This document shows positions 4,155-33,184 of a stretch of DNA of 64,000 nucleotides, piece after piece. The translations under genes and the position numbers were made by a program. The DNA comes from Caminibacter pacificus (GTDB lineage Bacteria; Campylobacterota; Campylobacteria; Campylobacterales; Nautiliaceae). Position 1 is the first letter of the stretch. Each line of letters begins with the position of its first letter. Location: positions 1-64,000 of the forward strand of contig NZ_RJVK01000006.1 of the NCBI RefSeq assembly GCF_003752135.1. Direction: 5' to 3'. The notes beneath the pieces were generated by a model that saw only the letters and a program-made list of their open reading frames with translations, was not told where the DNA came from and did not search any database.

Positions 4155-4184
4155 TGTCTAAAAACTAAGGAGTATTGTAATGGC
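4129..4184 (+). repeat. 56-bp exact direct repeat, copy A (promoter, leader and start codon)
   Basis: Identical over 56 bases to 29771-29826. The repeat spans the promoter box, the -10, the ribosome site and ATGGC, and places the same control region in front of the two halves of a helicase. Confidence 0.95.
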
Positions 4185-7100
4185 AAAACTTATAATCGAC
4201 CCAAATGATTCGAAAGGTTTTAGATTTTATTTAAAAACAGAAGAGGGCGAAACTAAGCTTGATAAGATATTACAAATTGAAGACGGAAAATTAAAAACAA
4301 AAATTACAATGGACGGGGTTAGCGCAAATTTTATTACACCGGCTACGTTAGCGTTAGTATTACCGCGCGATATAGAAGAGGCTAAAAAAGTTTTAGAAGA
4401 ACATCCTGAAGGAGTATTATACCTATCCTCGATTACAAGTGAGAGTCAATATCACACAATCGACGAGATTGAAATTAAAGACTTTAAAGCAGATTTTTCA
4501 AATACAAAGGCTAAGACGGAATTAAAAGCGTATGAAACTCCCGAAAGATTTTTCGACTTTTTAGGCTCTCTTATTGAAGATGAAATAAAAAAAAGAATAT
4601 TTTTAGAGGATAATATAACTAAAATTGAAACCCTTATTCAAAAAGACAAAGATTTTATGGGAAAAATTACAACCAAATTGCAATTTGTTCCTATCGGACA
4701 AATTAAGGATGCTATTAAATACCTTTTAAATGAAAACGATTTGAATATGAGTAATTTTGCTGAGGATTATGTAAAAGTAGCGGAAGAAATAAAAAAAGAA
4801 GAAAAATTTTTTAACCTCATAGAGGATTTGAAGTTCTTTTTACAAAAACCCCTAAAAGAGCTACAAAGCGAAAATGTAATTCAGGAAATTAAAAAAGCAA
4901 AATTAACCCCTCTTAAAATTGAAAAAATCGGAATTTTTGACCCTCAAGCGGGGAGCGGAAAAATACTTGATATTTTTAAAAACAAAGGTATCAATTCAGC
5001 CCTTTTAGGAACCGAGTTGAGGGATATTCAAAATAACGACCCGGATTATAAGGTTATTACGGGTGTCAATTTTTCTATCCATAAAAACGTCATTAAAGAT
5101 GTGTTAGAAAGTAAAAAAAGTCATATTCCAAAAAATCTTATTTATTATCTAAACCCACCTTATACTAAAGACGATGAGGTGGCAAAAGATTCTATTCAAT
5201 CATTGCCTGATAACGCTTTCGTAATGGGATTATTTCCTACAAAAATGGCTAAATTTCTAAAAAATATCCTTAAAGGTATTATTTTTGAAATACCAAAAGA
5301 GCTTACAGGCTATAATGATTCAAATGCACCTGAAAATTTTTTGTTTATTTTTGGGGTAAAACCTTCAAATAATCAACTATTTAGCGGGGCTAAGTATTAC
5401 AAAGTCGATAGTTACGAAAGTATAAAAAAGATAATTGACGAATTTTTGCAAGACAACTATCTTGTAGATTCGAAGTTAGACGAAATTCTTACATATTACA
5501 GAGCCGAAAGAAACTTTGATTCGTTTAAAAATTTATTACAAAAAGCGATTCAAGATAATGAAGAGCTTTATAAAAATATAGAACGATTAAGGGAAAGTAT
5601 AAGCATTGATTTAATCAAAGAGTTTTTTTCACCTATAAATAGAGCTATTAAAGGCAAAGTATTTCAAGATTCAAGATTTTTTGTAAAAGATGATAAAGAT
5701 GAAAAAAAACTATCTTTTTTTGAAGTCGTGCAAGATTTAACACTTCTTAATTTTTATAAAAACGTTATGCCTGAAACGTTTAAGCTCATTCAGCTTGTCG
5801 CAGAGAAAATTAATTATAAACTTCCTCATATGGAAGACAATTTCCGTCACTATAAGCTTGGGGATAAGTATGAGGGAGAAAAAGACTTAGTGACAAATAA
5901 AAACTTAGGTATGATGAAACTTTATTATTACCCTGACGTAATTGATATTTCCGAGCAGTATTCTAAAGACCTCTTATTCAAAATCGTCAAAGAAATTGCC
6001 GAAGATAACAAAGTTAATGTAACTATTGACGAAGAAATCGAATTTAAAAAACTTCTTCAAAAAGCGGATAAGCTTGTTTTTAAGAACGAAAAAAGCATAT
6101 CCCTTGAAGAGGGAATTTCTTATAACAATGAGGTATATGTATTAACCGATAAGTTTGGATTTGACCTTGCAAAATTATCTTGTAACGTAAATGATTTTTT
6201 TAAAAAGTTACAGGAATACAATTTATTTAACTTTGACGACTTTGTAGATGAGGTTGAAATTTCAAACGAAAAACTTGAAAAAGTAATTAGTAGATTTGAA
6301 GAATATATGAAAAATGACGTAATTGATTCTATTTTAAGATTTAATTTTAAAATAGGAACGTTTGAGGGATTTGATGAAGAAGCGGAGTTTCAAGAAGTAA
6401 AAACGAAGTTTATAGATGAAATTATTGCGTTAAAAAACAAAAACGTAACTCAGTTACTTGAATTTGCGGATAAATATAAACTTATTGAGTTTTTCCAAGA
6501 AAGAATTGTTTTTCCTGACTTTAAAAGACAATTGAAAAAAGAAATGGATAAAACATTTCCTATTAATAACGAAGAAGTTAAAAAGAAAGTGTATAAATTT
6601 ATCGTTCAAAGTTACGAAAATAGAGAAATTACCTTCTTCGAGAACGAAAGGGGGGCTTTCTTTAATGAGTTAAAAAAAGCTCTTAAGCAAAAATATGAAT
6701 TCAAAGACGAAGATTATGAAGATTTTATTTTAGCCGTAACCGATGCCTTAACTGAGAGATATAAAGCAAAAAGAGCTATTTTTACGGGTTACGCAAAGCT
6801 TGCGTTAATTTTGAAAAATTATGCTAAACTCATAACCGCTAAGAATTTTGAAGAGAAGAAAAAAATATTTATGACCGATTTGTTTTTAAAAGCGTTTGGA
6901 TTAAAACCTCATCAGGCAAAAGAAGCGTTTAACTATTTGGAATTGTCTCCAAATAAAAAACTCGAAATGCTGTTTTGGGAGATGAGGGCAGGAAAAACAA
7001 GGGCAATGCTGGCAATAGGTTTTCTGCTTAGCTTATATAAAAACGAAAAATTCCAGCTTTTAATCGAAACGGCAAACACTTACGATATTTCGCAACAAAT

Positions 7101-7392
7101 TTTGGAAAGTTTTCCATTTTTATTCGTTGATGCGGGTATATATACTCCGTCAGGTGATTTGCCGTTAAACGATGTTTATGAATCGATTATGTATGAAGAA
7201 ATAATTCCGAATATCCCCGTATATACGCAAAAGTATCTTATCGGTAAAGGTGATACTGCGGACATTATTAAAAAGAACTTCTACAAAGATTTTATGGAAA
7301 TTAAGAAACTGATTGATTCCAACCCCGATGAATATGCTAAAATTTATGAAAAATCCGATTTTGCGGAGATTTTAAAAGTTTGTAGGAGGTAA
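4180..7392 (+). CDS. N6-adenine methyltransferase with the N-terminal part of an SF2 helicase (1070 aa)
   Basis: Two activities are visible. The methyltransferase core has motif I DPQAGSGK (from D254) and motif IV NPPY at 325-328, the order of gamma-class N6-adenine enzymes. Near the C-terminus, after 600 residues of mostly helical sequence, HQAKEAFNYL and WEMRAGKT (933-940) match the Q-like region and Walker A motif of SF2 helicases, followed by a motif Ia-like stretch. The protein then ends, 130 residues later, with no DEAH box and no C-terminal RecA domain. Those motifs occur in the protein at 29822-33184, which has the same promoter and leader. Phage and plasmid anti-restriction proteins such as P1 DarB carry methyltransferase and helicase in one chain, so this resembles a split version. 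GTAGGAGG at its end serves the next gene. Confidence 0.75.
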   Translation: MAKLIIDPNDSKGFRFYLKTEEGETKLDKILQIEDGKLKTKITMDGVSANFITPATLALVLPRDIEEAKKVLEEHPEGVLYLSSITSESQYHTIDEIEIKDFKADFSNTKAKTELKAYETPERFFDFLGSLIEDEIKKRIFLEDNITKIETLIQKDKDFMGKITTKLQFVPIGQIKDAIKYLLNENDLNMSNFAEDYVKVAEEIKKEEKFFNLIEDLKFFLQKPLKELQSENVIQEIKKAKLTPLKIEKIGIFDPQAGSGKILDIFKNKGINSALLGTELRDIQNNDPDYKVITGVNFSIHKNVIKDVLESKKSHIPKNLIYYLNPPYTKDDEVAKDSIQSLPDNAFVMGLFPTKMAKFLKNILKGIIFEIPKELTGYNDSNAPENFLFIFGVKPSNNQLFSGAKYYKVDSYESIKKIIDEFLQDNYLVDSKLDEILTYYRAERNFDSFKNLLQKAIQDNEELYKNIERLRESISIDLIKEFFSPINRAIKGKVFQDSRFFVKDDKDEKKLSFFEVVQDLTLLNFYKNVMPETFKLIQLVAEKINYKLPHMEDNFRHYKLGDKYEGEKDLVTNKNLGMMKLYYYPDVIDISEQYSKDLLFKIVKEIAEDNKVNVTIDEEIEFKKLLQKADKLVFKNEKSISLEEGISYNNEVYVLTDKFGFDLAKLSCNVNDFFKKLQEYNLFNFDDFVDEVEISNEKLEKVISRFEEYMKNDVIDSILRFNFKIGTFEGFDEEAEFQEVKTKFIDEIIALKNKNVTQLLEFADKYKLIEFFQERIVFPDFKRQLKKEMDKTFPINNEEVKKKVYKFIVQSYENREITFFENERGAFFNELKKALKQKYEFKDEDYEDFILAVTDALTERYKAKRAIFTGYAKLALILKNYAKLITAKNFEEKKKIFMTDLFLKAFGLKPHQAKEAFNYLELSPNKKLEMLFWEMRAGKTRAMLAIGFLLSLYKNEKFQLLIETANTYDISQQILESFPFLFVDAGIYTPSGDLPLNDVYESIMYEEIIPNIPVYTQKYLIGKGDTADIIKKNFYKDFMEIKKLIDSNPDEYAKIYEKSDFAEILKVCRR

Positions 7393-7396
7393 TAAA

Positions 7397-8755
7397 ATGA
7401 ATAAAGATAAATTACTCGAGATAATTAGAAACTGCGAAGAGATACCTGAGAACATAAATGAGCTTGGCATCTCTTTTGATGATACTGACGAGAGAGCCTA
7501 TGAAATATTTATCGCTAACGATGAGATTTTATCATCTGTTATAGACGGAGAGACATTTGAAAGTTTGTTTGCGGATGCGGTACATAATTCATTAGATGAA
7601 GTAATAACCCTTTTGGAGGAAAAATTCGGTTCTTATTTTTATTATACGAAAGAGGTAAATAAAGAGATTTTCAAGGCGTTAAGGGATGCGCCTCTTATAA
7701 AGATATATAGCGATAATATCTTTAATGAAGAAGAAATTAACAAAATGTTGAGTAAAGAATATGTAACTTTTGATAATGAAGAATACCTAAAAGATTATTT
7801 GTTTGAATACCCTTTTTATAATTTGTTTAACAGGAAGCTGTCATATATACTTGAAGACGCAATAAATGCCGCAAGAGTTGAACCGCTTGAACTTGCCATA
7901 GAAGATGAGGATACAAATGAGCTTTTAGCTATTGATTTTAGAAAATTTTTTCAAAAACTATACGATGGCTGGAGTGATTTTGTATATAAAAAGTATGGTT
8001 ATTTGCTTGAATATGAAAATCAAGCTGAACTAAACCTTAAAAATGTACCCGGTATTATTATAGATGTTTTAAAAAAATATAGGGATTTGAATGTATTGTT
8101 TTTTGATATCGACAAAGAAAGTATTGAAGTTAAAGATACTGACTATATTCGTTCCGATAAAACTATTGAATATCTTAGTAACGGAATGGTTGTTTATAAT
8201 CAAGAAGGATTATATTTCAAAGTCTTTAAAGATAAAAAAAGTTTTGAGAATTGGAGAGAAACGGGAGAAGAAAAGTATATATTGTCCGAGTTTAATGATG
8301 AAAAAGAGCTTGACGAATATCTTGGTATGTTTTCTTTAATTAAGATTAGCAGTATGGACGGACTAAGTCCTGAGCCTAACATATTTATACTCAATCCTAA
8401 AGATTTATTAACAAGGTTACAAAAATATAATAATGGTGCAAGAATTGAGTATCTAAATGAGTTTTTATACGAATTACAAAAATATAAACTGCCTGAATAT
8501 TTTAATTATAAACCCGATATTATTCTTGCGTATGAAGACGGAAATATAAAGGTAAAAAATAATTCGTTTTTAACAACTGAATTATTTTATTTAACGAATT
8601 TATATAAAGAATACAAAAACGGAAAAATTAATAAAAAATTCTTAGAAGAAACAATACGCTCTTTAAACGATAAAGAGGTAGAAAATTTTATTTTTCCTAA
8701 AATAAAAATTAAACACGAAAATCAAAATTCAAATAACTTAACAAACAATATGTAA
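7397..8755 (+). CDS. Unknown acidic protein with C-terminal FYLT module (452 aa)
   Basis: It starts four bases after the methyltransferase stop with an excellent AGGAGG, so it is in the same transcript. The sequence is acidic, with no membrane segment or known catalytic motif. Near the C-terminus, ELFYLTNLYKEYKNGKI begins the FYLT module shared with five other reading frames here, followed by a lysine-rich, then N-rich tail ending NNLTNNM. It may be a partner of the split methyltransferase/helicase; that rests only on operon position. Confidence 0.6.
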   Translation: MNKDKLLEIIRNCEEIPENINELGISFDDTDERAYEIFIANDEILSSVIDGETFESLFADAVHNSLDEVITLLEEKFGSYFYYTKEVNKEIFKALRDAPLIKIYSDNIFNEEEINKMLSKEYVTFDNEEYLKDYLFEYPFYNLFNRKLSYILEDAINAARVEPLELAIEDEDTNELLAIDFRKFFQKLYDGWSDFVYKKYGYLLEYENQAELNLKNVPGIIIDVLKKYRDLNVLFFDIDKESIEVKDTDYIRSDKTIEYLSNGMVVYNQEGLYFKVFKDKKSFENWRETGEEKYILSEFNDEKELDEYLGMFSLIKISSMDGLSPEPNIFILNPKDLLTRLQKYNNGARIEYLNEFLYELQKYKLPEYFNYKPDIILAYEDGNIKVKNNSFLTTELFYLTNLYKEYKNGKINKKFLEETIRSLNDKEVENFIFPKIKIKHENQNSNNLTNNM

Positions 8756-8760
8756 CACCC

Positions 8761-8786
8761 CCCGATAAATTCCCGGGATTTTTTTT
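8761..8786 (+). terminator. Probable intrinsic terminator
   Basis: CCCG at 8761-8764 pairs with CGGG at 8774-8777, and T residues follow at 8779-8786. The stem is short, so efficiency is uncertain. Confidence 0.5.
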
Positions 8787-8815
8787 CTTTACCCCCTTTA
8801 AAAAGCTATGAAAAA
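8761..8815 (+). repeat. 55-bp inverted repeat, copy A (terminator-like)
   Basis: These 55 bases are the exact reverse complement of 58956-59010. The segment contains CCCGATAAATTCCCGGG followed by eight T residues, a short stem with a T-run that can end transcription of the preceding operon, and then the start of the next gene's upstream region. Confidence 0.9.
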
Positions 8816-8851
8816 ATATTAAACTTATAAAAGAAAACATAAAGGTTGATA

Positions 8852-10809: not shown

Positions 10810-10814
10810 TAAGT

Positions 10815-13433: not shown

Positions 13434-13465
13434 CTCCTCTAAAATAGAAAAGTTATCCCTATAAT
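13434..13465 (+). promoter_or_regulatory. Box promoter 2 (DndC-like gene)
   Basis: CTCC at 13434-13437, seven bases, TAGAAAAGTT at 13445-13454, five bases, TATAAT at 13460-13465. Transcription would begin about ten bases before the start codon, giving a very short leader. Confidence 0.85.
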
Positions 13466-13480: not shown

Positions 13481-15280
13481 ATGCGTTTGACTGATTATAG
13501 GGATATAATACAAAATATCAAAAACGTAGTAGCTGATTTTTTGCAAAAAGATTATGCTATTTCTGTTGCTTTTAGTGGTGGCAAGGATAGCACTTTAACA
13601 CTTATTTTGTTTTTTGAGGCTATAAAAGAATTTCCGCTTCAGTTTTTAGAGAATAAGAAAATAAGCATTAATTTCTCCGATACCTTAATGGAGTTGCCGC
13701 AATATGAGATATATGTCATAGAAACCCTTAAAAAAATTGAAGAATATATACAAAAGCAGGGCTGGAATATAAAACTCAATAAAATCAAACCTGAACGAAA
13801 ACACAAGTTTTTTAACTTAATACTCGGAAAAGGGCAAACGCTCCCGAGACGAGACTTCCGATGGTGCACGGATAGATTAAAGATATTGCCTCAGGAGAAA
13901 CTTGAGGATATGGAAGAGAAAAAATTAACGATTATAGGAGCAAGGAAAGAGGAGTCAAATGATAGAAAAAAAAGACTTGAGAAGAATAGTTCGGAAGAAA
14001 ATAAATATATAAAGAAAGTTAATGACAATAAATATCTTTTTGCTCCTATTGAAGATTTAAAACTTGAAGACGTTTGGGAGGGAATTTTTCTTTTTTCTCA
14101 AAATTCTTTCCAAACAGACCCACAGGAATGGATTAATTTTACAGACATCTATAATCTTTACAAATCCGCCACAAGCAATAAAGATTTGTATCCTGATGCG
14201 CGCTTTGGTTGTTGGTTGTGCCCTTTGGTAAAAAAAGACCAAACCTTAATGAATTTAGTTGAAAAATATCCTCAATATCAACCTCTATTGGAATTTAGAG
14301 ATTTTATTATGAGTTATCAAACGATATGGAGTAAAAGTCCTCATTTGCCCCCTCTTAGGGACATATATAATCATCGTAATTTTAAGGTAAATTTATACAA
14401 AATAAAAAATCATCGTCAAGGTATGATTTCTCCCGGAGGTTATTCTCTTGAAACAAGAATTATGTTTTACGAAAAATTATTGACCACTTTAAAAGAAGTA
14501 AAAAATTTAGATAAAAAATTTCCTCTTAAAGTTTATTTGGATGAAGAAGATATTAAATATATTCAAGAGATTTGGTTTTTTGAGGGAGACTATAATTTAA
14601 CTGCTTATAAAAAAGCTAAGGAAATTTTAGAAATTGATATTAACTATACAAATCTCTCAAAAGAGGTTCGCTTTTATAAACAATTTTTGTATTTATATAC
14701 TCATTATTACTGCCCTTATAAGGCAGATGAAGCAAGTTTTTCTGATATAAGAGATGAAATTCTTATTATGAAAGAATTTGTAAAGATTAATAAAATAGAT
14801 ATTAAAGAAATAGATTTAATGGATAAAGTTTATTTTGGAGATTTAATCCATTCATATGCTACCGCAAGAAAGTTTATATTTGAAGAGTTAAGAGAAAAAG
14901 GTGTGTATTTTAGTGATTCGTCATTTGAGTATAAAATTGCTGAAGAATGGTTTAGGGATGAAATAAGTTTTTGGGTTTTTGAATACCTACACCGCAAGGG
15001 ATATGTAAAATTTGTAGAAGACAAAATAAGACCTGATTCTCTCGAGAGATTTTATAATGCTCTTGAATTTATGAAGGTTGCTGACTCTGTAGAGGCGGTT
15101 GAAGAGAATCCTTTTTTAACAATTGAGGAAAAAATTGAGTTTATGGAACTTAACAGAGAGGGAATTAATAACTACAAAATATATCTTGAGAAGATAGAAA
15201 AATACTTTGACGAATTATATGCCGAGAAAAATGAGGAGCAAGAATATCCAAAAATTTCTCAACTTTCTCTTTTTAGCTGA
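13481..15280 (+). CDS. DndC-like PAPS-reductase-family sulfurtransferase with C-terminal clamp motif (599 aa)
   Basis: The ATP-pyrophosphatase loop SGGKDST is at residues 32-38. DndC-type signatures follow: SDTLMELP, LGKGQTLPRRDFRWCTDRLK (C129), GARKEES and RFGCWLC (C244, C247), whose cysteines would hold an iron-sulfur cluster. In dnd systems DndC activates sulfur for DNA phosphorothioation. DndB, DndD, DndE and a cysteine desulfurase are not seen nearby, so this is an orphan or uses host partners. The last residues are SQLSLFS: QLSLF fits the beta-clamp-binding consensus QL[SD]LF, unexpected in this family. The ribosome site almost touches the ATG, so TTG at 13487 may be the true start. BREX and related PAPS-reductase-like proteins are alternatives. 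Confidence 0.75.
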   Translation: MRLTDYRDIIQNIKNVVADFLQKDYAISVAFSGGKDSTLTLILFFEAIKEFPLQFLENKKISINFSDTLMELPQYEIYVIETLKKIEEYIQKQGWNIKLNKIKPERKHKFFNLILGKGQTLPRRDFRWCTDRLKILPQEKLEDMEEKKLTIIGARKEESNDRKKRLEKNSSEENKYIKKVNDNKYLFAPIEDLKLEDVWEGIFLFSQNSFQTDPQEWINFTDIYNLYKSATSNKDLYPDARFGCWLCPLVKKDQTLMNLVEKYPQYQPLLEFRDFIMSYQTIWSKSPHLPPLRDIYNHRNFKVNLYKIKNHRQGMISPGGYSLETRIMFYEKLLTTLKEVKNLDKKFPLKVYLDEEDIKYIQEIWFFEGDYNLTAYKKAKEILEIDINYTNLSKEVRFYKQFLYLYTHYYCPYKADEASFSDIRDEILIMKEFVKINKIDIKEIDLMDKVYFGDLIHSYATARKFIFEELREKGVYFSDSSFEYKIAEEWFRDEISFWVFEYLHRKGYVKFVEDKIRPDSLERFYNALEFMKVADSVEAVEENPFLTIEEKIEFMELNREGINNYKIYLEKIEKYFDELYAEKNEEQEYPKISQLSLFS

Positions 15281-15289: not shown

Positions 15290-15310
15290 TAGAAAAGTTA
15301 TTCCTATAAT
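15290..15310 (+). promoter_or_regulatory. Box promoter 3
   Basis: TAGAAAAGTT at 15290-15299, five bases, TATAAT at 15305-15310. It starts nine bases after the DndC-like stop, so the next gene can be expressed independently. The upstream CTCC is missing. Confidence 0.8.
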
Positions 15311-15332: not shown

Positions 15333-16286
15333 ATGCCTTATCTACCAAAAGAAAAAATTGCTGAAATAAGAAAAGAACTTAAAAAAACCTTTCCGTTTAT
15401 AAAATTCTCTGTTAAACAAAAGCCAAAATCTTCCGGTGTTGATATAGTTATAAAAAGTAGTAAAAAAATAAACTTTGGCGATATGCTCGTTGGTGAGTTT
15501 TATCCAAAAAAAAGTATCAATCATTATTATATTATGCCTCGTTATTTTAATTCGTTTCCTAAGCAGGCTCTTATTTTGGAACAAATAAAAGAAATTGTTG
15601 CAAGAATAGGGGGATTAAAAACGGAATACGAAGATGTTGATTATGGAAGTGTTCCTACATTTTATTTAGCAATCTCCATAGGCTCTCTTAAAGAGCCGTA
15701 TATTTTTGAAGACGGATACCCTCTTAAAGTAGAACAGCTTATTCCACTTGAAAATATCCCGGTAGGTGAGAAAGTTTCGGAAGATGAAATAAGGCTTAAT
15801 AATCCAAATGCAATGAGGGTTAATTTCTTAAACGATTTAAACGCTTTTCTTACCGCAAATGGAATTAAATTTGGTGACCTTCAAATCAGTTTCTATACCG
15901 ACCCTGAACATAAAAGATTGATTTTTAAAGTGGATAATTATACTCACGCAAGGGAAAAACTCTTTGAGTTTTTAAATGATTTTCATTACAGATTAAAAAA
16001 CCCTACCGGAAATCAGGAATATATAGAACTTGATGATACTTATCTCGTTGCAGAATATAACTTAAAACAAGAAAAGAAAAAAATTGAGGAGGATATAAAC
16101 TATTTTTATTTAACTAAAGCATTTGGTTTTCTTAGAAAAGGAGAAATGATTGATTTAGAAGTTAAAAGACTTATAAACGATGTATTTTGGGATAATCAAA
16201 AACTAAGAGACGACCTCATCGAAAAAGTTGAAAGTTATCAAAAAAACAAACTTGAAAACTCAAACGGAATTTCACTTTCTCTCTAA
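15333..16286 (+). CDS. Unknown protein with C-terminal FYLT-like segment (317 aa)
   Basis: AAAAGGAGCG precedes the ATG. The protein is a mix of strands and helices with no membrane segment. Near residue 253, INYFYLTKAFGFLRKGEM is a divergent version of the FYLT module, and the protein ends GISLSL, resembling the S/P-[ST]-[LI] endings of its neighbours. It has its own box promoter. Function unknown. Confidence 0.55.
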   Translation: MPYLPKEKIAEIRKELKKTFPFIKFSVKQKPKSSGVDIVIKSSKKINFGDMLVGEFYPKKSINHYYIMPRYFNSFPKQALILEQIKEIVARIGGLKTEYEDVDYGSVPTFYLAISIGSLKEPYIFEDGYPLKVEQLIPLENIPVGEKVSEDEIRLNNPNAMRVNFLNDLNAFLTANGIKFGDLQISFYTDPEHKRLIFKVDNYTHAREKLFEFLNDFHYRLKNPTGNQEYIELDDTYLVAEYNLKQEKKKIEEDINYFYLTKAFGFLRKGEMIDLEVKRLINDVFWDNQKLRDDLIEKVESYQKNKLENSNGISLSL

Positions 16287-16299: not shown

Positions 16300-16331
16300 C
16301 TCCTTTGCAATAGAAAAGTTTGTTTTATAAT
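16300..16331 (+). promoter_or_regulatory. Box promoter 4
   Basis: CTCC at 16300-16303, seven bases, TAGAAAAGTT at 16311-16320, five bases, TATAAT at 16326-16331. It serves the repeat protein and the FYLT gene behind it. Confidence 0.85.
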
Positions 16332-16359: not shown

Positions 16360-16752
16360 ATGTTATGTACTTATAACGGATTGGAAGTAATTCCAAACAT
16401 TAATTTAAAATTTGTAAAAAATTTTGCAAATCAAAAAGAGCTTGAAAGATATGCAAATAGCAATTGTGTTGAAATTAGAAAAGCCGTTGCAAGCAGCTAC
16501 AACGTTCCTGTGACTTTACTTGCAAAACTTGCAAAAGACCCTGACGTTGAGGTAAAAAAATCGGTAGCAATCAATCCGAATACACCAAGTTATATACTCG
16601 CAAAACTTGCAAAAGACCCTGATAGCGAAGTTAGAGAGTTAGTTTTGTATAATTTAAATACGCCAGAGTTTGTTATAAAACATCTTACAAACGACCCTGA
16701 TAAAAAAGTTAGGGAGGAGGCTAAAAGTATGCTTAGAATTTTAAATAGCTAA
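16360..16752 (+). CDS. Leucine-rich-variant (LRV/HEAT-like) repeat protein (130 aa)
   Basis: At least three tandem repeats of about 24 residues are visible from residue 40 on, with the pattern VRxxVAxNxNTPxxxLxKLAKDPDxE. This is typical of LRV or HEAT-like alpha solenoids that act as protein- or nucleic-acid-binding scaffolds. There is no signal peptide, so it is cytoplasmic. It shares a transcript with the FYLT protein behind it. Confidence 0.75.
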   Translation: MLCTYNGLEVIPNINLKFVKNFANQKELERYANSNCVEIRKAVASSYNVPVTLLAKLAKDPDVEVKKSVAINPNTPSYILAKLAKDPDSEVRELVLYNLNTPEFVIKHLTNDPDKKVREEAKSMLRILNS

Positions 16753-16773
16753 ATAGAAGTGAAAGGAGTAAAA

Positions 16774-17658
16774 ATGAAAGAAAAAATAACCTTTGGTGAG
16801 CTTTTAAATTATTATAATTCAGATAATAACTATGTCGTTTTAGATAAAATGGAAACTAAAAAAGCAGTATATCTACCAAATTGTGTTTATTTTGATAAAG
16901 AAGATTTAGAGAAATTTAAAGAAAAGTTTGATATTGATGTAAAGAAATTATATTTTGATGAAAAAAATCTTTTTTCCGTAATTGAAAAAATTGAGGAACA
17001 AAATGAAGAAAAAGCCGAAGAGATTAAAGATTTTTTAAGAGAATTACCTTATTTGCCTCAGTATAAGCCGGGCTATTATTGCGAAGATATAATCGCTCAA
17101 GAGGATTTGGAAGGACTTGGCGATGTTATTGTTTTAGATTTAAGTAACGGGATTTTAAATGCACCGGAAGATTTTAATGATGTAATGGAAAATTATTATT
17201 TTTGGTGGGACGGAAAAAATTGGAATTCTTCAGAAATAGGTTATATGGATGAGGTTTATGCGGAAGAAATAGATAGCAGAAAAGATAACAATCTTATTTA
17301 TACTTATTATAAGGCTTTTAATAATCTAAGGTTTAGAGTAATTGACACTCCTTACATTGAAAGTTTGCCTGAGATTGATACGGAATGGGGTGATTGGGAA
17401 AAAATTGAAGAGAAACTTGGTAATATTAATCGTTATATTCGAAAACTATCTCTTAAAACAGAACTTATTAATAACGATAAAGGATTTTTTTATCTCACCG
17501 AAACATATCAAGACTATAAAAAAGGGATTTTATCGTTTGACGATTTAGAAATGATTATACAAAAATCCGATATAAAAGATAATATAAAAAAATCACTTAT
17601 TGACACTTTAAACCCAAATAGTGTAGATAACTCTCCTTCAAATTCTCCGACTATCTAA
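16774..17658 (+). CDS. Unknown acidic protein with C-terminal FYLT module (294 aa)
   Basis: The start at 16774 is chosen because AAAGGAG lies seven bases upstream; a GTG 15 bases earlier would include that site in the gene. The body is acidic (many D and E) with no known motif. Near residue 237, KGFFYLTETYQDYKKGIL forms the FYLT module, followed by a linker of N, S and P ending SNSPTI. The DNA coding for the module is almost identical to that in the gene at 21989. Confidence 0.6.
   Translation: MKEKITFGELLNYYNSDNNYVVLDKMETKKAVYLPNCVYFDKEDLEKFKEKFDIDVKKLYFDEKNLFSVIEKIEEQNEEKAEEIKDFLRELPYLPQYKPGYYCEDIIAQEDLEGLGDVIVLDLSNGILNAPEDFNDVMENYYFWWDGKNWNSSEIGYMDEVYAEEIDSRKDNNLIYTYYKAFNNLRFRVIDTPYIESLPEIDTEWGDWEKIEEKLGNINRYIRKLSLKTELINNDKGFFYLTETYQDYKKGILSFDDLEMIIQKSDIKDNIKKSLIDTLNPNSVDNSPSNSPTI
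17476..17520 (+). repeat. 45-bp near-identical repeat within FYLT coding DNA, copy A
   Basis: It matches 22418-22462 at 44 of 45 positions, while the two genes are otherwise unrelated at DNA level. Confidence 0.9.
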
Positions 17659-17682: not shown

Positions 17683-17714
17683 CTCCTTTTAAGTAGAAAA
17701 GTTGTCTTTATAAT
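17683..17714 (+). promoter_or_regulatory. Box promoter 5 (921-residue protein)
   Basis: CTCC at 17683-17686, seven bases, TAGAAAAGTT at 17694-17703, five bases, TATAAT at 17709-17714. Confidence 0.85.
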
Positions 17715-21988: not shown

Positions 21989-22594
21989 ATGTATATTGAT
22001 ATATTTAAAGTAAAAAATTACAAAAAAGTCGAAGTTATGGAGGGAATTTACGCCTCAGCCGGGAGTTTTATGCTTGAGATGAGAAATTGTTTAAAAAGAG
22101 AGTTCCCGGAAGTGTATTTTGATAATGATGAAACATTGCCGGCAAAAAATATCGGTTGTTTCATTTTCGGACAGCCTGATAAATGGAAGTCTGTCCTTGC
22201 AATAAGATATGAAAATGATGATAATAGTAAAGAAACAGCCGATATCATTGTCAGACTTGATAAATATAGATGTCCCGACTCTTTTAAAATAGGGACAATT
22301 ATAGCGGTTAAAATGACTCTCGAAAAACTTAAAGAAGAGGGGATTATTGAAGATTTTGAAAAAGCAGAGGGATATTATATTGCTTTCTTAGAAAAAGAAA
22401 GAGAAAAAATAGAACAGGATAAAGGATTTTTTTATCTCACCGAAACATATCGAGACTATAAAGAAGAAATTTTGACTAAAGATAAATTAAAATATATAGT
22501 TTCTCAGGTGTTTGATAATTTTGATATCGAGAAATTTTTAACAAAAGAGCAATATACAATATTAAAAAAACCAACCCGTTCAACTATAAAATAA
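21989..22594 (+). CDS. Unknown protein with C-terminal FYLT module (201 aa)
   Basis: It starts one base after the previous stop, with AAAGGAGAAG as ribosome site. An N-terminal alpha/beta region of about 130 residues has no known family. KGFFYLTETYRDYKEEIL begins near residue 143, and the protein ends PTRSTIK. The FYLT coding DNA matches that of the gene at 16774. Beyond the stop, another frame stays open for about 45 codons, which hints that this 3' end was altered by a frameshift. Confidence 0.55.
   Translation: MYIDIFKVKNYKKVEVMEGIYASAGSFMLEMRNCLKREFPEVYFDNDETLPAKNIGCFIFGQPDKWKSVLAIRYENDDNSKETADIIVRLDKYRCPDSFKIGTIIAVKMTLEKLKEEGIIEDFEKAEGYYIAFLEKEREKIEQDKGFFYLTETYRDYKEEILTKDKLKYIVSQVFDNFDIEKFLTKEQYTILKKPTRSTIK
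22418..22462 (+). repeat. 45-bp near-identical repeat within FYLT coding DNA, copy B
   Basis: Matches 17476-17520 at 44 of 45 positions, pointing to recent gene conversion or module exchange. Confidence 0.9.
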
Positions 22595-24753: not shown

Positions 24754-25878
24754 ATGCCACGCTTTAATCTTAACGCTAAAGACAATATACACGATACCCT
24801 ATTCTTTTGGCTACAACAATATACCAAATTTAAAGCAATGATTCTATCGCTTAAAAACGCAAACGAAGAACAAATAAAGACGCTTATTAAACAAATAGAA
24901 TACGCTAAAAACTTTAAAGAACTTCACGAAATTATGAAAAAATCAAAACATATATCTTCAGCATACGAATATTTTATTAAAAATTACAAATTTACGCAGT
25001 GGCTTATAGAAAACAATGCAATCGAAAAAATGGAAGATATAGATACTTTCTTGGTAATTGAGTTTTTAACGCAAATAACGGCAAACAAAAGCAAATCAAC
25101 GATGGAAAATTACAAAAACGCAGTTATAAATTTTTTAAAGTTTATTGAAGACAATCTATCATTAAGAGATAGCAATTTTTCCTTTAAATTAAAAGTATCG
25201 AAATGGCAAAGCAATTTGTATCGCTTAAAAGACAAAAAGCCCGACTATTTGTGCGAAGAAGAGATAGACAGATTGCTTGAAACGATAGAACAATACGAAT
25301 TTAAAACGGGAAATACTAAAAAACCAAGCGAATATCTAAAAGCGTTATATAGACTTACTATTCAGTTTGCCTTATTCGGAGGATTAAGAATAAGCGAGAT
25401 TGCAAATTTAAAGCTAAAAGACATATATATTAATAAAAAAGATGATATTATGGAAGTATTTATCGAAGAGAGCAAAAACCAAAAAAGCCGTGTAGTATCC
25501 ATCCCCTATTCCAAAGGAAAATATACGATTAAAAAAGCATACGAGGAATATTTGGAGAAAAGAAAAGATTTTCTAAATAGTTTGGAAGAGCCGTGCGAAC
25601 TTGCAAAAGAATATTTAATAATTACGAATAAGTGTAAAAAAATATCATCGCAAACAATGGAAAATATTTTAAAAAAATTATTTTTAAAAGCGGGAATATT
25701 AACAACCAAAAAAGGTATGCACTTATTAAGGCATACACACGCAAGTCTGTTTTATAAGAAAATGCAGGATGTTTTGCTTTTAAAGGAACGATTAGGACAC
25801 GATAATATAAGAACTACGATGAGATATACGCATTTGGATGAAGAAAAAATGAAAAAGTCGGCTGATGCGATGAGATAG
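24754..25878 (+). CDS. Tyrosine recombinase / integrase (374 aa)
   Basis: An N-terminal SAM-like core-binding domain (about 60-150) is followed by the catalytic domain with R212 in GGLRISE, HLLRH (H323, R326), GH (H349) and the nucleophile Y358 in RYTH. These are the residues needed for strand exchange. Integrases of this type excise and insert elements or resolve multimers. It lies at the end of a small-gene cluster and beside two repressor modules, as expected for a mobile segment. AAAAAGGACG precedes the ATG. Confidence 0.9.
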   Translation: MPRFNLNAKDNIHDTLFFWLQQYTKFKAMILSLKNANEEQIKTLIKQIEYAKNFKELHEIMKKSKHISSAYEYFIKNYKFTQWLIENNAIEKMEDIDTFLVIEFLTQITANKSKSTMENYKNAVINFLKFIEDNLSLRDSNFSFKLKVSKWQSNLYRLKDKKPDYLCEEEIDRLLETIEQYEFKTGNTKKPSEYLKALYRLTIQFALFGGLRISEIANLKLKDIYINKKDDIMEVFIEESKNQKSRVVSIPYSKGKYTIKKAYEEYLEKRKDFLNSLEEPCELAKEYLIITNKCKKISSQTMENILKKLFLKAGILTTKKGMHLLRHTHASLFYKKMQDVLLLKERLGHDNIRTTMRYTHLDEEKMKKSADAMR

Positions 25879-27224: not shown

Positions 27225-27231
27225 AAATTAT

Positions 27232-27810: not shown

Positions 27811-27821
27811 TTTAATCCTCC

Positions 27822-28070
27822 TTAAATTCTTTCTATCTTTATAAGGGCGTATTGCCCTTTTATAACTCCAAAAATATACGGCTCTTTTTTTACAAATACT
27901 ACCTCGCTTTTTTGTTTTCTTAATCTCTCAAAATCCTTTTTAGTTATGGGAATCTGTTTTGAAAGCCCGTAAATTTTATGTATTTCCCATAATTCCAAAC
28001 CTTTTGTTATATTTATAGGCTTTTGCGGGAAAAACACATAGTTCCCGCTTTCTAACTTAATTTTTTTCAT
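27822..28070 (-). CDS. Small protein of unknown function (82 aa)
   Basis: It is a beta-rich small protein (YVFFPQKP, VVFVKKEPYIFGVI). It is the first gene after a consensus promoter that resembles the operator-bearing promoter of the first module. Confidence 0.45.
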   Translation of the reverse strand: MKKIKLESGNYVFFPQKPINITKGLELWEIHKIYGLSKQIPITKKDFERLRKQKSEVVFVKKEPYIFGVIKGQYALIKIERI

Positions 28071-28089
28071 TTTAGTTCCTTTTTAAGAA

Positions 28090-28118
28090 ATTATAACGTA
28101 TATTATTCGCCAAGTCAA
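28090..28118 (-). promoter_or_regulatory. Promoter TTGACT-17-TATAAT with partial operator
   Basis: On the minus strand TTGACT is the complement of 28113-28118 and TATAAT that of 28090-28095. The spacer shares AATAATA and flanking CG bases with the palindrome at 26643-26663, but one arm has diverged. Confidence 0.75.
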
Positions 28119-28193
28119 TAAATTTATGAAAATATTACTTGATTTTTTATCAGAAATATATCATAATATGAAAAATTTACAAAAGGAGCAAAA

Positions 28194-28502
28194 ATGAAAA
28201 TATCTTTAAAAAAAACCGCCGATTTTGTCGGCATTACTGAAAGAACTCTTTATATTTGGAAAACACCAAAAAATATAAATGGCGTTAAATATCATTCTTC
28301 GTTTGGAAAACATAATCTGTATTTGGGGGCAAGAATTGCCTCCTATCTGTTTTTAAACGAAAAAGACGAACAGGAAAATAATTTTGAAGCATTAAAAAAC
28401 GCTTTGGAAGAGTTAAAAAACTGCATAAAGGAAGAAAAAATAAAACCGCTTGAAGAATTCATAAACGCGGTTGAGGTTTTTAAAAATGAATTAAAAAATT
28501 AA
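28194..28502 (+). CDS. Helix-turn-helix regulator of the second module (102 aa)
   Basis: The N-terminus SLKKTADFVGITERTLYIWKT is a helix-turn-helix. Residues 60-100 form an acidic helix for dimerisation. It is divergent from the operon at 27232-28070, the same layout as the first module, but the two regulators are not close relatives outside this motif. Confidence 0.65.
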   Translation: MKISLKKTADFVGITERTLYIWKTPKNINGVKYHSSFGKHNLYLGARIASYLFLNEKDEQENNFEALKNALEELKNCIKEEKIKPLEEFINAVEVFKNELKN

Positions 28503-28594
28503 AAATTTTTGCTACAATAATATCGACTCCTCTCCCCTCTTTTCGTTATAAATAACCCTGAAAGAAAATTTAATAATACTCTTAAAGGTTATAA

Positions 28595-28948
28595 ATGAGT
28601 CTTAATAAAATTAACCGATTTGATATAAATACGGAAATATATTTACTCAATAAAGAAAAGGATATTTACTCTTATTTATATAGACTTCAAAAAGTGTCTT
28701 CTTACTTTTATGTAAAAAAAGTGGAAATAAAAAAACTATACGGCTATAAAGACAAACACAAAAGTCAAAATTTTAACTTCTTAAAAAACACTTTTTCTAA
28801 GATAGACCATTCTTATGCCGAAAGAGTTATTAAAAGATTGGAATGCGAACAGATAAAAAGCCCGAAAAAGTTTTTAAATATTGAGGGGAGAGATATTTTA
28901 CAAAAAACCCTTGCAATGTATAAAATTTGTAAAAGATTTTTCAAATAG
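28595..28948 (+). CDS. Small basic protein of unknown function (117 aa)
   Basis: TTAAAGG precedes the ATG. The protein is lysine- and tyrosine-rich and helical, which suggests nucleic-acid binding. Its stop coincides with the start of the next box promoter. Confidence 0.45.
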   Translation: MSLNKINRFDINTEIYLLNKEKDIYSYLYRLQKVSSYFYVKKVEIKKLYGYKDKHKSQNFNFLKNTFSKIDHSYAERVIKRLECEQIKSPKKFLNIEGRDILQKTLAMYKICKRFFK

Positions 28949-28966
28949 AAAAGTTAAGATTATAAT
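28946..28966 (+). promoter_or_regulatory. Box promoter 6 (FYLT gene)
   Basis: TAGAAAAGTT at 28946-28955, five bases, TATAAT at 28961-28966. The TAG is also the stop codon of the preceding gene. No upstream CTCC. Confidence 0.8.
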
Positions 28967-28996
28967 AAATGCAAATCTTACCAAAGGAGTAAAAAT

Positions 28997-29404
28997 ATGG
29001 AAAAAGAGAAAGAACTAAATAACATCCTTGATGAACTTGAATGGGGAGGAGAAACTATTGCACTTGATGTCATAACTTTAGCTGAAAATTTAGTTGCAAG
29101 AGCGAAAGAGCGAGGAATTAATGAAAAATATGTAATTTCTTATCTAAAACAAAATCCCGGCTCAATATCTCTCTCAAATGATGAAAAAGAGATATTATTT
29201 GATTATCTTAAACTAAGAGAAAACGAGCAAATAAAAGAAGACCCGGCGTTTTTTTACTTAACTGATTTTTATAAAAAATATAAGGATGATAAAATTATCT
29301 TACTTTCTGCCGTTTCGGCACTTGGAAAAGATTTTGAATATATTGTGAATGAAATCAGAAACAGAGATAAAAAACAAAGTCTTTCTACTATGCCGACACT
29401 TTAA
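28997..29404 (+). CDS. Small FYLT-module protein (135 aa)
   Basis: CAAAGGAG precedes the ATG. A helical N-terminal 75 residues is followed by PAFFYLTDFYKKYKDDKI and a helical end with the tail STMPTL. Here the module makes up a large part of a small protein, which supports its being an independent unit. The degenerate copy behind it has a very similar end. Confidence 0.6.
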   Translation: MEKEKELNNILDELEWGGETIALDVITLAENLVARAKERGINEKYVISYLKQNPGSISLSNDEKEILFDYLKLRENEQIKEDPAFFYLTDFYKKYKDDKIILLSAVSALGKDFEYIVNEIRNRDKKQSLSTMPTL

Positions 29405-29414
29405 TAAATAATAA

Positions 29415-29753
29415 GAGCAATTACAAAAAGCATATAACTTTTGGATAGACAACAAGATTGAAGTTGAATTTGGAAAAACATTTAAACTCTTTACTTTGTT
29501 TGATTTTTTTCTGAAGAAAAATAACTATAACCATAATGAGATTTTATCTGATTTTGCAAATTTAAAAAAAGATAGGCAAATTAAGCAAGAATCAGAAATG
29601 TTTTATCTAACAGAATTTTATCAGAAATATAGAAAAGATAAGAACATTTTATTGACTGCTTTATATGCTCTTGGGGATAAATTTGAAAAAATCGCGAATC
29701 AAATAAAAGAAAATTTACAAGAAAAAAACAACTTTAACGCACCTTCTCTTTAA
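29415..29753 (+). pseudogene. 5'-truncated FYLT-module gene
   Basis: The frame is open from a stop at 29412-29414 to the TAA at 29751-29753, but it has no ATG or ribosome site before the module; the first usable codon is a TTG at 29496. The coding-like sequence before that TTG (EQLQKAYNFWIDNKIEVEFG) suggests a lost N-terminus. EMFYLTEFYQKYRKDKNIL and the tail NAPSL parallel the preceding gene, so it may be a decayed duplicate. Translation from the TTG cannot be excluded. Confidence 0.55.
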
Positions 29754-29764
29754 TCTCTCTTTTT

Positions 29765-29796
29765 CTCCTTCAAAATAGAAAAGTTGCCATTATAAT
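29765..29796 (+). promoter_or_regulatory. Box promoter 7 (helicase C-half)
   Basis: CTCC at 29765-29768, seven bases, TAGAAAAGTT at 29776-29785, five bases, TATAAT at 29791-29796. Confidence 0.85.
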
Positions 29797-29826
29797 TGTC
29801 TAAAAACTAAGGAGTATTGTAATGGC
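29771..29826 (+). repeat. 56-bp exact direct repeat, copy B
   Basis: Identical to 4129-4184, including the ribosome site and the first codon plus two bases. Confidence 0.95.
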
Positions 29827-32800
29827 TTGCCCTAAAAATTATTTAATAACTACTATTGCGTTTTTAGAAAAAATGGTAGAAAAAGGATATTTACCAAACG
29901 ACCCTGAAACTAAAAAAAGAATTGCTATTGAAATAGCAAAAGACTATGAAAATTACTTAGAGGAATTTGAAAAATATCAGAGAAAAAATAACTCAAATAA
30001 AGAGACAGGGATTGACCTCATCTCAAAAAGCCTGCTTTATTCTGTGAATTTTAATGAAGAAGCAAAACCTGAACAAATAGTTTTATCTACAAAAAGCAGT
30101 ATCTTGAATAAATACGATATTCAAATAAACGTAAAATCTCTATTTAAAGAAGACGAAACCGAAAATATCATTATTCCTGATTTTAATTATACTTTTTACA
30201 CGGGCGAGGATAAAATTGTCTTACCTAAACACAAAGCTCTAAACTATTTTATTTCATATTTTGCGATAACAGACCCTTACGTAATTACCACCCTTAAAGA
30301 TTTTCTTAACGAACAAGGAAAAATTTATAAAGAAGAAATTGTTACAATTGATGATAACGTAGAAACGTTTATCGAGATTAATCCTCAGTCTTTACTAAGT
30401 TTTTTGCAAAATAATAACGTTATTGATGAGGATAAAATTGACGTATTTGAACTAAACAAAGAAATTACCGCCTTTTATTTAGCAGATTTGGAAAGAGCTT
30501 TAAAATCAAATAGAAGAAACGAAAATCTTAGTATCTTAAGTGACGCTTTAACTTCTAATCATATTTTTTCTGAAAGCAAATTTCCACTTAAAATAAGACT
30601 TATCCCTCTTGATGAGAAAATAGTTCTCCCTGAGATTAATTACAAAAGTAAAGGTGAAGAAGTAAAAGAAAAATATATCGTATCCTTTGATAAAATAACC
30701 CCAAATAAAGAGCTTCCTCATTTGGAAGATGTGAAATCAATACAACCTCAAAAAGTGACTTTCTCGGTACATCTCACTAAAAAATTATTCCAACTTGAGG
30801 CGGATGAGTTTAATGATGAGGTGAGTCCTCTGATATTAAACAATACGGCAATGAATAAAAAATATTTTTACCCGGAAACTATCCTTAATGAGTTCAAAAA
30901 CGTTATAGTGGATGAATCGGATAAAAATCTCTCAGGACTTCTTGCAAATATTTTTAGAAAAATCGGACAGGGAGACGGCAAAAATATCGTAATCGCAACG
31001 GGGTCACCTATTGCCGGATACGGCAAAGACCTCGTTTATCTTATGGGGTATTCGGGTGAGCTTACAATTGATATGATTCAAGAAAACGTTGCAAACTTTA
31101 ATAAACTTGTAGGGGTGTATGAAATAAACCTTAATCAATTAAAAAAAATACTTCCTTATCTTTCTTATAAGGAAGTTGATGATATTTTTGAAAATGCTTA
31201 TCAGCATTTTGTTAGCAGTAAAGCTAAAGATAAAGTTTTTAACTCTTTTAAGTTCTTTAACGAAATTGCTACGGAGATTTTAAGGGCTCTTACAAATTTA
31301 GGTGAAAGTAATAAAGTTGAAATGGATACAAGAAAGATATTTTCTATTGATAAAGAAGAGTTTGCAAAAGATTTAGATAAAGTATTTTCTTTAATTTATA
31401 AAGAAAAAATATCCGATAATTCATTCCAAAATAAATTTTTCAAACTATCCTCAATTAACAATAACGGAATTTTTAAATTAATTCCGTCTATCTTAAACCC
31501 AAAAACTATGACGGCTCTTGTAAAAATGTTCCCTTATTCCTCTTCTATTATGTCAAGAGAGACGTTAAAAGGTAGAAAAGAGATAATGAACTTCTTAGAT
31601 TTAGATAATTTTCAATTTACTTATCAATCTCCGGACAGCATAAAACCTGAAAAAGCATTTGAATATAACGATATGAGCGTTAGATTTTTTTATGAATCAG
31701 CTCGATATTACTCTGCTGTTAATTATATTAACCAAATTTATTTCTATACACTTACAAATTTTTCTTCTTTTATAAAGATGTTAAAAACACAAACTAAAGA
31801 GCTGAAAAAAGTGTTTGATGCACTTGGATTTGAATATAGCGTTAATGATATTAAAACACTTCTTAGTAAAAGTTCTACTTCCGGTAAAGATACTATGTAT
31901 AACTTATACAAAACTTTTATAGACGATAACGGAAGTATGGAAAATGTTGAAAAATTAATTCCGCAAGACGTTAAAGACGATAAAATGATTGTTTTTAATT
32001 CTATTTTAAAAATATTCGATATTTATATGAATAAGTTGAATGAAATTACCAAAAGCGGAGGTTTCTCAATTAATCTTGGTAACGATGAAGTAAGTTTTAA
32101 AGTAAAAGAAACCGACTATATTGAAGAATTTAAAAACATTCTTGGAGAAACTTTATCTACTAAAAATATTCTTTTTGATGAGGGCTATCCATATATAGAC
32201 GAACACAAAGTTATATTTACTTATCCTCTTGACCTTGCAATAAAAAGAGAATGGAAAGAACTCCTAAGACAAAACGAAGACGGAAAATACATTCCGTATA
32301 ACTTTAGAATTACAAATAAAGCGGAAGAAGACTTATTTGATGTACTTGGCTCTAAAGGTATTTATAAGAACATCGAAGACGTCTTAAAAAGAGACAAAGA
32401 AAAAGGATTTGTTATCAGTTCTGCAAGAACAGGAGGAGCAGTGTTTAACTTACTTGATACTCTTACGGCTCTTATAAGAGCAAAACAATTTAATTCTTTC
32501 CCTATGGATAAAAAAGTTAATATTATTTTTAATGTCCCGAGCAGTGAGGAGTTAAACGTAAAAGATATCCTTTCGCGCATCAGAGAAGAGTTGATAAAAC
32601 CATATAATATTGAGATTATACCGGTTTCAAGAACTTCACTTGATTCACAACTGCGCTCGTCTATAAACAAAAAATACTATACGATAGTTGTGTCAAACTA
32701 TGAGAGCGTTTCAAGAGGACTTGATTTATCTGCTCTTAGTCACATTATAGCCACCGGAAGGATGACTAAAGGTAAAGAGTTTATTCAATTTTTGTCAAGA

Positions 32801-33184
32801 CTCTTTAGCGTTGATAATGACAAAGCAGATATTTTTATGTTCCATTCGGGATACGATGTAACTTTAGCGCCTAAAAACAAAGACTCTGTTGCAATTTTTA
32901 CTGAGTTTTTTAATAACGATATTCTTGATAATAAGGAAAATATAAATGAACTACTTATTAAGTTGCTTGAAGCAGAAGAAATTGTTTTTACGAATACCTC
33001 AACAAATGAAACGATGAAAAAAAGTTACGATAAAATAATGACATATAAATTCTTTATGAGTGGAGAGCGTACAGGTGCTTTTAAAAACGAAGCACAAAAT
33101 TCGCTTTTCGAAGCAAAAACAAAAAAAAGTAAAGAAACCACTCAAGAACAAGAACTTACATCACATATCTCTCAAGAAATATAA
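29822..33184 (+). CDS. C-terminal half of a split SF2 helicase (1120 aa)
   Basis: After about 350 residues without a known motif, VIVDESD at 361-367 is a DEAH-like motif II and IATGSP at 391-396 is motif III. Further on, SSARTGG lies in the motif IV region, NYESVSRGLDLS is motif V and GRMTKGKEFIQFLSR at 979-993 is motif VI. Walker A is missing. It is found at the end of the methyltransferase protein at 4180-7392, which has the same promoter and leader. Together they would make a full SF2 ATPase, perhaps of the strawberry-notch/DarB type. The end is K/E/Q-rich and flexible. Alternatively, an inactive helicase-like protein with its own role. Confidence 0.65.
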   Translation: MACPKNYLITTIAFLEKMVEKGYLPNDPETKKRIAIEIAKDYENYLEEFEKYQRKNNSNKETGIDLISKSLLYSVNFNEEAKPEQIVLSTKSSILNKYDIQINVKSLFKEDETENIIIPDFNYTFYTGEDKIVLPKHKALNYFISYFAITDPYVITTLKDFLNEQGKIYKEEIVTIDDNVETFIEINPQSLLSFLQNNNVIDEDKIDVFELNKEITAFYLADLERALKSNRRNENLSILSDALTSNHIFSESKFPLKIRLIPLDEKIVLPEINYKSKGEEVKEKYIVSFDKITPNKELPHLEDVKSIQPQKVTFSVHLTKKLFQLEADEFNDEVSPLILNNTAMNKKYFYPETILNEFKNVIVDESDKNLSGLLANIFRKIGQGDGKNIVIATGSPIAGYGKDLVYLMGYSGELTIDMIQENVANFNKLVGVYEINLNQLKKILPYLSYKEVDDIFENAYQHFVSSKAKDKVFNSFKFFNEIATEILRALTNLGESNKVEMDTRKIFSIDKEEFAKDLDKVFSLIYKEKISDNSFQNKFFKLSSINNNGIFKLIPSILNPKTMTALVKMFPYSSSIMSRETLKGRKEIMNFLDLDNFQFTYQSPDSIKPEKAFEYNDMSVRFFYESARYYSAVNYINQIYFYTLTNFSSFIKMLKTQTKELKKVFDALGFEYSVNDIKTLLSKSSTSGKDTMYNLYKTFIDDNGSMENVEKLIPQDVKDDKMIVFNSILKIFDIYMNKLNEITKSGGFSINLGNDEVSFKVKETDYIEEFKNILGETLSTKNILFDEGYPYIDEHKVIFTYPLDLAIKREWKELLRQNEDGKYIPYNFRITNKAEEDLFDVLGSKGIYKNIEDVLKRDKEKGFVISSARTGGAVFNLLDTLTALIRAKQFNSFPMDKKVNIIFNVPSSEELNVKDILSRIREELIKPYNIEIIPVSRTSLDSQLRSSINKKYYTIVVSNYESVSRGLDLSALSHIIATGRMTKGKEFIQFLSRLFSVDNDKADIFMFHSGYDVTLAPKNKDSVAIFTEFFNNDILDNKENINELLIKLLEAEEIVFTNTSTNETMKKSYDKIMTYKFFMSGERTGAFKNEAQNSLFEAKTKKSKETTQEQELTSHISQEI

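What the first reader, a model, noticed from the sequence alone, without database searches (positions are those of the whole stretch)
4180..33184. SF2 helicase motifs divided between two genes 22 kb apart under an identical leader
The protein at 4180-7392 has an N6-adenine methyltransferase core and ends just after helicase motifs I and Ia. The protein at 29822-33184 lacks Walker A but has motif II (VIVDESD), motif III (IATGSP), motif V and motif VI (GRMTKGKEFIQFLSR). Their promoters and leaders are identical for 56 bases through the start codon. P1 DarB and similar anti-restriction proteins carry methyltransferase and helicase in one chain. A trans-assembled version would be new to me.
Basis: partly seen in the sequence, partly recalled or inferred. 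Interest (0 to 1): 0.86.

Follow-up and report, generated by a model that had tools for sequence, protein, structure and literature searches.

The report
Methylase-helicase gene cut in two
On a plasmid of a deep-sea bacterium, one giant DNA-methylating, DNA-motor protein has been cut cleanly in two inside its motor domain, with the halves encoded 22,000 bases apart behind copies of the same start signal, so the motor can probably work only if the two proteins fit together.

Summary
The window lies on a 92-kb circular plasmid of Caminibacter pacificus (NZ_CP040940.1). P0001 (4180-7392) carries N6-MTase motifs (YETP, DPQAGSG, NPPY) and Walker A (WEMRAGKT). P0002 (29822-33184) carries motifs II, III, V and VI. 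The 56-nt identity (51 nt upstream plus ATGGC) is exact.

The decisive evidence is an unsplit homologue, a single 2370-aa ORF in Campylobacteraceae MAG BB28. It aligns with P0001 and then P0002 in order. In separate local alignments P0001 runs to homologue residue 1190 and P0002 starts at 1196. The pair is therefore a nearly loss-free fission of one gene, inside the first RecA domain between motifs I and II. No other member was found in any collection searched.

The leader is partly explained by a plasmid-specific promoter class (TAGAAAAGTT-N5-TATAAT; 7 of 7 exact genomic matches lie on this plasmid), but the P0001/P0002 identity far exceeds the rest of that class. The same class drives a DndC homologue and an LPD29 protein, consistent with an anti-restriction programme.

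Assembly in trans is inferred, not shown. Resemblance to P1 DarB is architectural; profile similarity is weak and the LPD36 motif is absent. Split-intein and trans-splicing readings do not fit. Decay of a broken gene remains the main rival.

The parts
4129..4184 (+). 56-nt leader, copy 1: promoter box TAGAAAAGTT-N5-TATAAT (4134-4154), 5' UTR, RBS, ATGGC
4180..7392 (+). N-terminal half (P0001, 1070 aa): adenine-MTase motifs plus the first part of RecA1 (LKPHQ Q-motif-like, Walker A, putative Ia)
6976..6999 (+). Walker A WEMRAGKT in P0001 (residues 933-940)
7381..7396 (+). end of P0001: last codons and stop overlap the RBS of the next gene; point of fission
7397..8755 (+). 452-aa gene 4 nt downstream of P0001, not homologous to the unsplit protein; carries the FYLT module
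29771..29826 (+). 56-nt leader, copy 2, identical to copy 1
29822..33184 (+). C-terminal half (P0002, 1120 aa): rest of RecA1 (motifs II, III) and RecA2 (motifs V, VI)
30902..30922 (+). motif II VIVDESD in P0002 (approximate coordinates)
13445..13465 (+). same promoter class, upstream of the DndC homologue (13481-15280)
15290..15310 (+). same promoter class, upstream of the LPD29 gene (15333-16286)
16311..16331 (+). same promoter class, upstream of 16360-16752
17694..17714 (+). same promoter class, upstream of the 921-aa gene 17744-20509
28946..28966 (+). same promoter class, upstream of 28997-29404
33231..33251 (+). same promoter class (1 mismatch), upstream of 33293-33985

Best explanation
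P0001 and P0002 are the two halves of what was once a single adenine methyltransferase-SF2 (SNF2-like) translocase of about 2,200-2,400 aa, encoded by a conjugative-type plasmid. The gene was cut between motifs I/Ia and II of RecA1, within a long insertion; nothing detectable was lost. The downstream half acquired a copy of the upstream half's promoter, RBS and start codon, which should give matched synthesis of both. Shown: the fission, the retained motifs, the duplicated leader, the plasmid-specific promoter class. Inferred: the two polypeptides associate, complete the RecA1 nucleotide site (Walker A from P0001, motif II from P0002, motif VI from P0002) and act as one ATP-driven DNA methyltransferase. 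Inferred from context: it protects plasmid DNA from host restriction during or just after transfer, together with co-regulated DndC-like and LPD29 proteins.
For: An unsplit 2370-aa homologue in MAG BB28 aligns with P0001 then P0002 over their lengths. Separate local alignments place P0001 900-1067 at homologue 1000-1190 (z 19.6) and P0002 5-100 at 1196-1297 (z 10). One tblastn piece spans homologue 1187-2338 from P0002's first codon. Catalytic motifs are intact in both halves. Both ORFs are open, with codon-position G+C like other plasmid genes. Leaders are identical for 56 nt, and the promoter class is plasmid-specific (7/7 exact, 12/13 with up to one mismatch). The AlphaFold model of the P0002 RecA2 region (pLDDT about 70-80 over its core, pTM 0.61) finds mostly SF2 and SNF2 motors in the PDB, although top E-values are only about 1e-3 with low TM. 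A DndC homologue (E 1e-57) and LPD29 (E 7e-7) share the promoter class. Coupling-protein and T4SS ATPase genes are present.
Against: Nothing shows that the halves meet. Only one split and one unsplit member are known, so persistence of the split through evolution cannot be tested. AlphaFold of the unsplit RecA1 region failed (pLDDT 33). Motif VI lacks the last Arg in both members, so ATPase activity is not certain. No family library recognises P0001 or P0002. Anti-restriction is inferred from context only.
Confidence: 0.6

Rival explanations
1. Decay: a rearrangement broke the gene recently and both halves are still-open but non-functional remnants.
For: A single known case; the leader copies are identical, so the break may be too recent for decay to show; motif conservation could predate the break; no assembly evidence.
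Against: No stop or frameshift in 2,190 codons. Each half has a promoter, RBS and start codon. The promoter copy sits precisely in frame on the second half, which random breakage does not supply. The junction loses at most about five residues.
Confidence: 0.22
2. Subfunctionalised halves: P0001 acts as a stand-alone methyltransferase and P0002 has its own DNA-binding or structural role, with no shared motor.
For: The MTase motifs lie wholly in P0001; the RecA2 region of P0002 is predicted to fold alone; leaders would be co-regulated anyway through the promoter class.
Against: Each half retains motifs that make sense only in a complete RecA1/RecA2 site: Walker A in P0001; DESD, SRGLDLS and the motif VI region in P0002. 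No replacement Walker A was seen in P0002.
Confidence: 0.13
3. The halves are joined after expression by a split intein or by RNA trans-splicing.
For: Split genes with distant halves are known to use such joining (general knowledge).
Against: Homology to the unsplit protein runs to within a few residues of both new ends, leaving no room for intein fragments. The next gene starts 4 nt after P0001's stop. Rfam finds no intron or other RNA family at its gathering cut-offs in the window.
Confidence: 0.02
4. The identical 56-nt leaders are recombination sites: recombination between them would excise a 25.6-kb segment, so the arrangement is switchable.
For: Direct repeats with a tyrosine recombinase gene between them (24754-25878).
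Against: Two assemblies agree on the unrecombined form. The repeat coincides with promoter, UTR and start codon. Recombination would delete P0001, not restore a fused gene.
Confidence: 0.03

Closest known systems
Unsplit homologue in Campylobacteraceae bacterium BB28 (JADGEE010000044.1, 2370 aa)
   Same: Full-length homology to P0001 followed by P0002, same motifs, same order
   Different: One polypeptide; about 26-36% identity; neighbours mostly unrelated to this plasmid
Phage P1 DarB and DarB-like polyvalent proteins (MTase-SNF2 dyad; PMC5512222)
   Same: Order MTase (TP motif, NPPY) then SF2/SNF2-type motor; mobile-element context; hhalign puts MTase motifs, Q-motif/Walker A and motif III opposite the matching DarB segments
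   Different: Similarity too weak for membership; no LPD36 GXG[GAS] motif; motor split between two genes; about 585 residues between motifs I and II in the unsplit homologue versus about 195 in DarB
M.AquI and M.EcoHK31I, naturally two-polypeptide DNA methyltransferases (PMC3404938)
   Same: Enzyme fold divided between two polypeptides; M.AquI's recombinant subunits are cited as together forming an active enzyme
   Different: C5-methyltransferases, split in the methylase rather than in a helicase motor
Split proteins of Nanoarchaeota, including reverse gyrase (PMC3655853)
   Same: One ancestral gene encoded as two non-adjacent genes in a thermophile
   Different: Cellular genes of reduced archaeal genomes, not a plasmid-borne methyltransferase motor; no report of copied leaders was read

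Membership tests
DarB-type MTase-SF2 dyad of polyvalent proteins (PMC5512222) | Gamma-class adenine MTase with N-terminal TP motif and NPP(Y/F) | tested here: met
   YETP (118), DPQAGSG (254), NPPY (325) in P0001; equivalents in the unsplit homologue. Motif level only; no Pfam hit.
DarB-type MTase-SF2 dyad of polyvalent proteins (PMC5512222) | SNF2-related SF2 module fused C-terminal to the MTase in one chain | tested here: not met
   In the window the module is divided between two genes; the fusion is present in the unsplit homologue.
DarB-type MTase-SF2 dyad of polyvalent proteins (PMC5512222) | LPD36 domain with GXG[GAS] motif before the MTase | tested here: not met
   No such motif before YETP in P0001 or the homologue by inspection; no Pfam or PHROG hit. 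A diverged domain cannot be excluded.
DarB-type MTase-SF2 dyad of polyvalent proteins (PMC5512222) | Sequence-profile homology to DarB | tested here: inconclusive
   hhalign: MTase 41% probability, E 2.7e-4; helicase segments 3-5% probability but opposite the right motifs.
DarB-type MTase-SF2 dyad of polyvalent proteins (PMC5512222) | Protects incoming DNA against type I restriction | not testable with these tools
   Needs an experiment.
SWI2/SNF2-like SF2 motors | Motifs I, II, III, V, VI on two RecA domains | tested here: met
   All present across the two proteins; RecA2 model resembles SF2 and SNF2 motors. Last Arg of motif VI is Ser.
SWI2/SNF2-like SF2 motors | Both RecA domains form one nucleotide site | tested here: inconclusive
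   AlphaFold of the unsplit RecA1 region failed (pLDDT 33); no complex prediction was possible.
Split-intein genes | Intein N and C fragments at the two new ends | tested here: not met
   Homology to the unsplit protein continues to within a few residues of both ends.
Trans-spliced genes | Split intron halves flanking the break | tested here: not met
   No Rfam match; the next gene starts 4 nt after P0001's stop.

The most novel reading that the evidence does not exclude
A natural SF2/SNF2 DNA motor whose first RecA domain is built from two separately encoded polypeptides (Walker A on one, motif II on the other), synthesised in equal amounts from duplicated leaders within a plasmid-specific anti-restriction regulon.
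Probability: 0.45. Interest if true: 0.75.

Novelty: new variant of a known kind. Interest (0 to 1): 0.58.

Why it matters
SF2 motors are generally taken to need an unbroken RecA1 domain. A natural break between Walker A and Walker B, with no loss of sequence and with a copied promoter-RBS-start cassette, would show that the core can assemble in trans. It would give a native split point for engineering conditional translocases and a clear example of how a gene fission is fixed, by copying the leader onto the orphaned half. It also points to a co-regulated set of DNA-protection genes on plasmids of deep-sea Campylobacterota, a group little studied for anti-defence.

Tried and rejected
AlphaFold of the unsplit RecA1 region (771 aa, 3-row alignment, MAFFT misplacing some ends) gave pLDDT 33 and is unusable. 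Considered and rejected: a third fragment in the neighbouring genes 7397 or 33293 (no homology); introns; sequencing or assembly error (two assemblies agree). The view that the leader identity is only the shared promoter class was rejected: other members share runs of at most 22 nt. That the split is ancestral and BB28 a fusion is unlikely, because the break lies inside one fold, but two members cannot polarise it formally.

Full report
Where it is. The window is part of contig C6 (92,405 nt, with a 70-nt end overlap, so circular) of a Caminibacter pacificus genome. The same plasmid is in PLSDB as NZ_CP040940.1 (92,229 bp, strain TB6), with both genes at 100% identity and the same 25,642-nt start-to-start distance. 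It encodes a TraD/TrbC-type coupling protein, a T2SS/T4SS ATPase and a topoisomerase, an SSB and a replication protein. MOB-suite calls it non-mobilizable.

The observation. P0001 (4180-7392) and P0002 (29822-33184) are uninterrupted ORFs of 1070 and 1120 aa. P0001 holds YETP, DPQAGSG and NPPY, a Q-motif-like LKPHQ and Walker A WEMRAGKT. P0002 holds VIVDESD, IATGSP, SRGLDLS and QFLSRLFS. Leaders are identical for 51 nt upstream plus ATGGC.

The key result. A single 2370-aa ORF in Campylobacteraceae MAG BB28 (JADGEE010000044.1) is homologous to P0001 and then to P0002. In independent local alignments P0001 residues 900-1067 match homologue 1000-1190 (z 19.6), and P0002 residues 5-100 match 1196-1297 (z 10). 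The last 60-90 residues of P0001 taken alone are not significantly similar, so the P0001 side of the junction rests on the longer segment. tblastn with the homologue gives one piece covering its residues 1187-2338 from P0002's start. The pair is thus a clean fission. The cut lies between Walker A (homologue 1038) and motif II (1622), inside RecA1 and within a long insertion. That position, inside one fold, makes fission of a fused ancestor more likely than fusion of two ancestral genes. P0001's last codons and stop overlap the RBS of the next gene; that gene is not a third fragment.

The leader. Box TAGAAAAGTT-N5-TATAAT has seven exact matches in the whole genome, all on this plasmid, and 12 of 13 sites with at most one mismatch are there (binomial p 3e-15; the box was derived from these sites, so the p value is optimistic). 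Each lies shortly upstream of a gene. So co-regulation is shared by about a dozen genes. The P0001/P0002 pair stands out because identity continues through UTR, RBS and start codon; the next longest shared run is 22 nt. A recent copying of the leader, or continued gene conversion, explains this. How the 22 kb came between the halves is unresolved.

Family. Pfam, PHROGs, NCBIfam and PADLOC do not recognise P0001 or P0002, whereas the DarB control is readily recognised. The unsplit homologue has a sub-threshold Helicase_C match (E 0.0037). hhalign against a DarB-family profile gives MTase 41% probability (E 2.7e-4) and low-probability matches for Q-motif/Walker A and motif III, each opposite the corresponding DarB segment. 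AlphaFold of the P0002 RecA2 region gives a core at pLDDT 70-80, and Foldseek returns mostly SF2 and SNF2 motors with weak E-values and low TM-scores. The published dyad has LPD36 with a GXG[GAS] motif and a single chain; neither is met. It works like a DarB-type dyad as far as architecture shows; membership is not claimed.

Function. The same promoter class drives a DndC homologue (13481-15280; E 1e-57) and an LPD29 protein (15333-16286), alongside unknown proteins. Plasmids are reported to carry anti-defence genes and methyltransferases in leading regions (PMC11541004), and MTase-helicase dyads are read as counter-restriction (PMC5512222). The most likely role is protection of plasmid DNA from restriction. 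No oriT was located, so a leading-region position is not shown.

Assembly. Naturally two-polypeptide methyltransferases exist, such as M.AquI (PMC3404938), and split genes are known in Nanoarchaeota (PMC3655853). Here assembly is inferred from retention of all motifs across the two halves and from matched leaders. It is not demonstrated: AlphaFold of the unsplit RecA1 region failed, no complex could be modelled, and with one split and one unsplit member purifying selection on the split state cannot be tested. Post-translational or RNA joining is unlikely because homology runs to both new ends and no intron was found.

Verdict. Observation confirmed, division of the motor strongly supported, trans-assembly plausible (about 0.6), DarB membership not established.

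Noticed in passing
window 4134, 13445, 15290, 16311, 17694, 28946, 29776, 33231, 57190 (+), 56987 (-); C6 85726 (-), 87133 (+): Plasmid-specific promoter class TAGAAAAGTT-N5-TATAAT without an obvious -35; the box position resembles the '-22 region' annotated for P1 late promoters, suggesting a plasmid-encoded activator.
   Followed up: partly
C-termini of 15333-16286, 16759-17658, 17744-20509, 28997-29404, 29496-29753, 33293-33985: Six plasmid proteins end in [ST][LI], often after an N/P-rich tail (PSL, PTL, SPTI, NSL, SLSL); all six are in promoter-box transcripts (6/13 versus 0/87, p 1.4e-6; pattern chosen after looking). Possibly a secretion or docking signal.
   Followed up: partly
7397-8755, 16759-17658, 21989-22594, 28997-29404, 29496-29753: A roughly 45-aa module (FFYLTxxYxxYK) near the C-terminus of five plasmid proteins, including the genes directly after P0001 and directly before P0002.
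   Followed up: partly
13481-15280: Lone DndC homologue (E 1e-57) in the same promoter class; no other Dnd protein was looked for systematically.
   Followed up: partly
3926-3968 and 58519-58561: 43-nt inverted repeat (91%) containing a perfect sigma-70 promoter TTGACA-17-TATAAT.
   Followed up: no
8761-8843 and 58928-59010: 83-nt inverted repeat, 86% complementary, 50 kb apart.
   Followed up: no
57232-58041: Zeta-toxin-like kinase gene behind a promoter of the same class with one mismatch.
   Followed up: no
P0002 989-996 and unsplit homologue 2238-2247: Motif VI reads QxLSRxFS: the last Arg of QxxGRxxR is Ser in both members, so ATP hydrolysis chemistry may differ.
   Followed up: no
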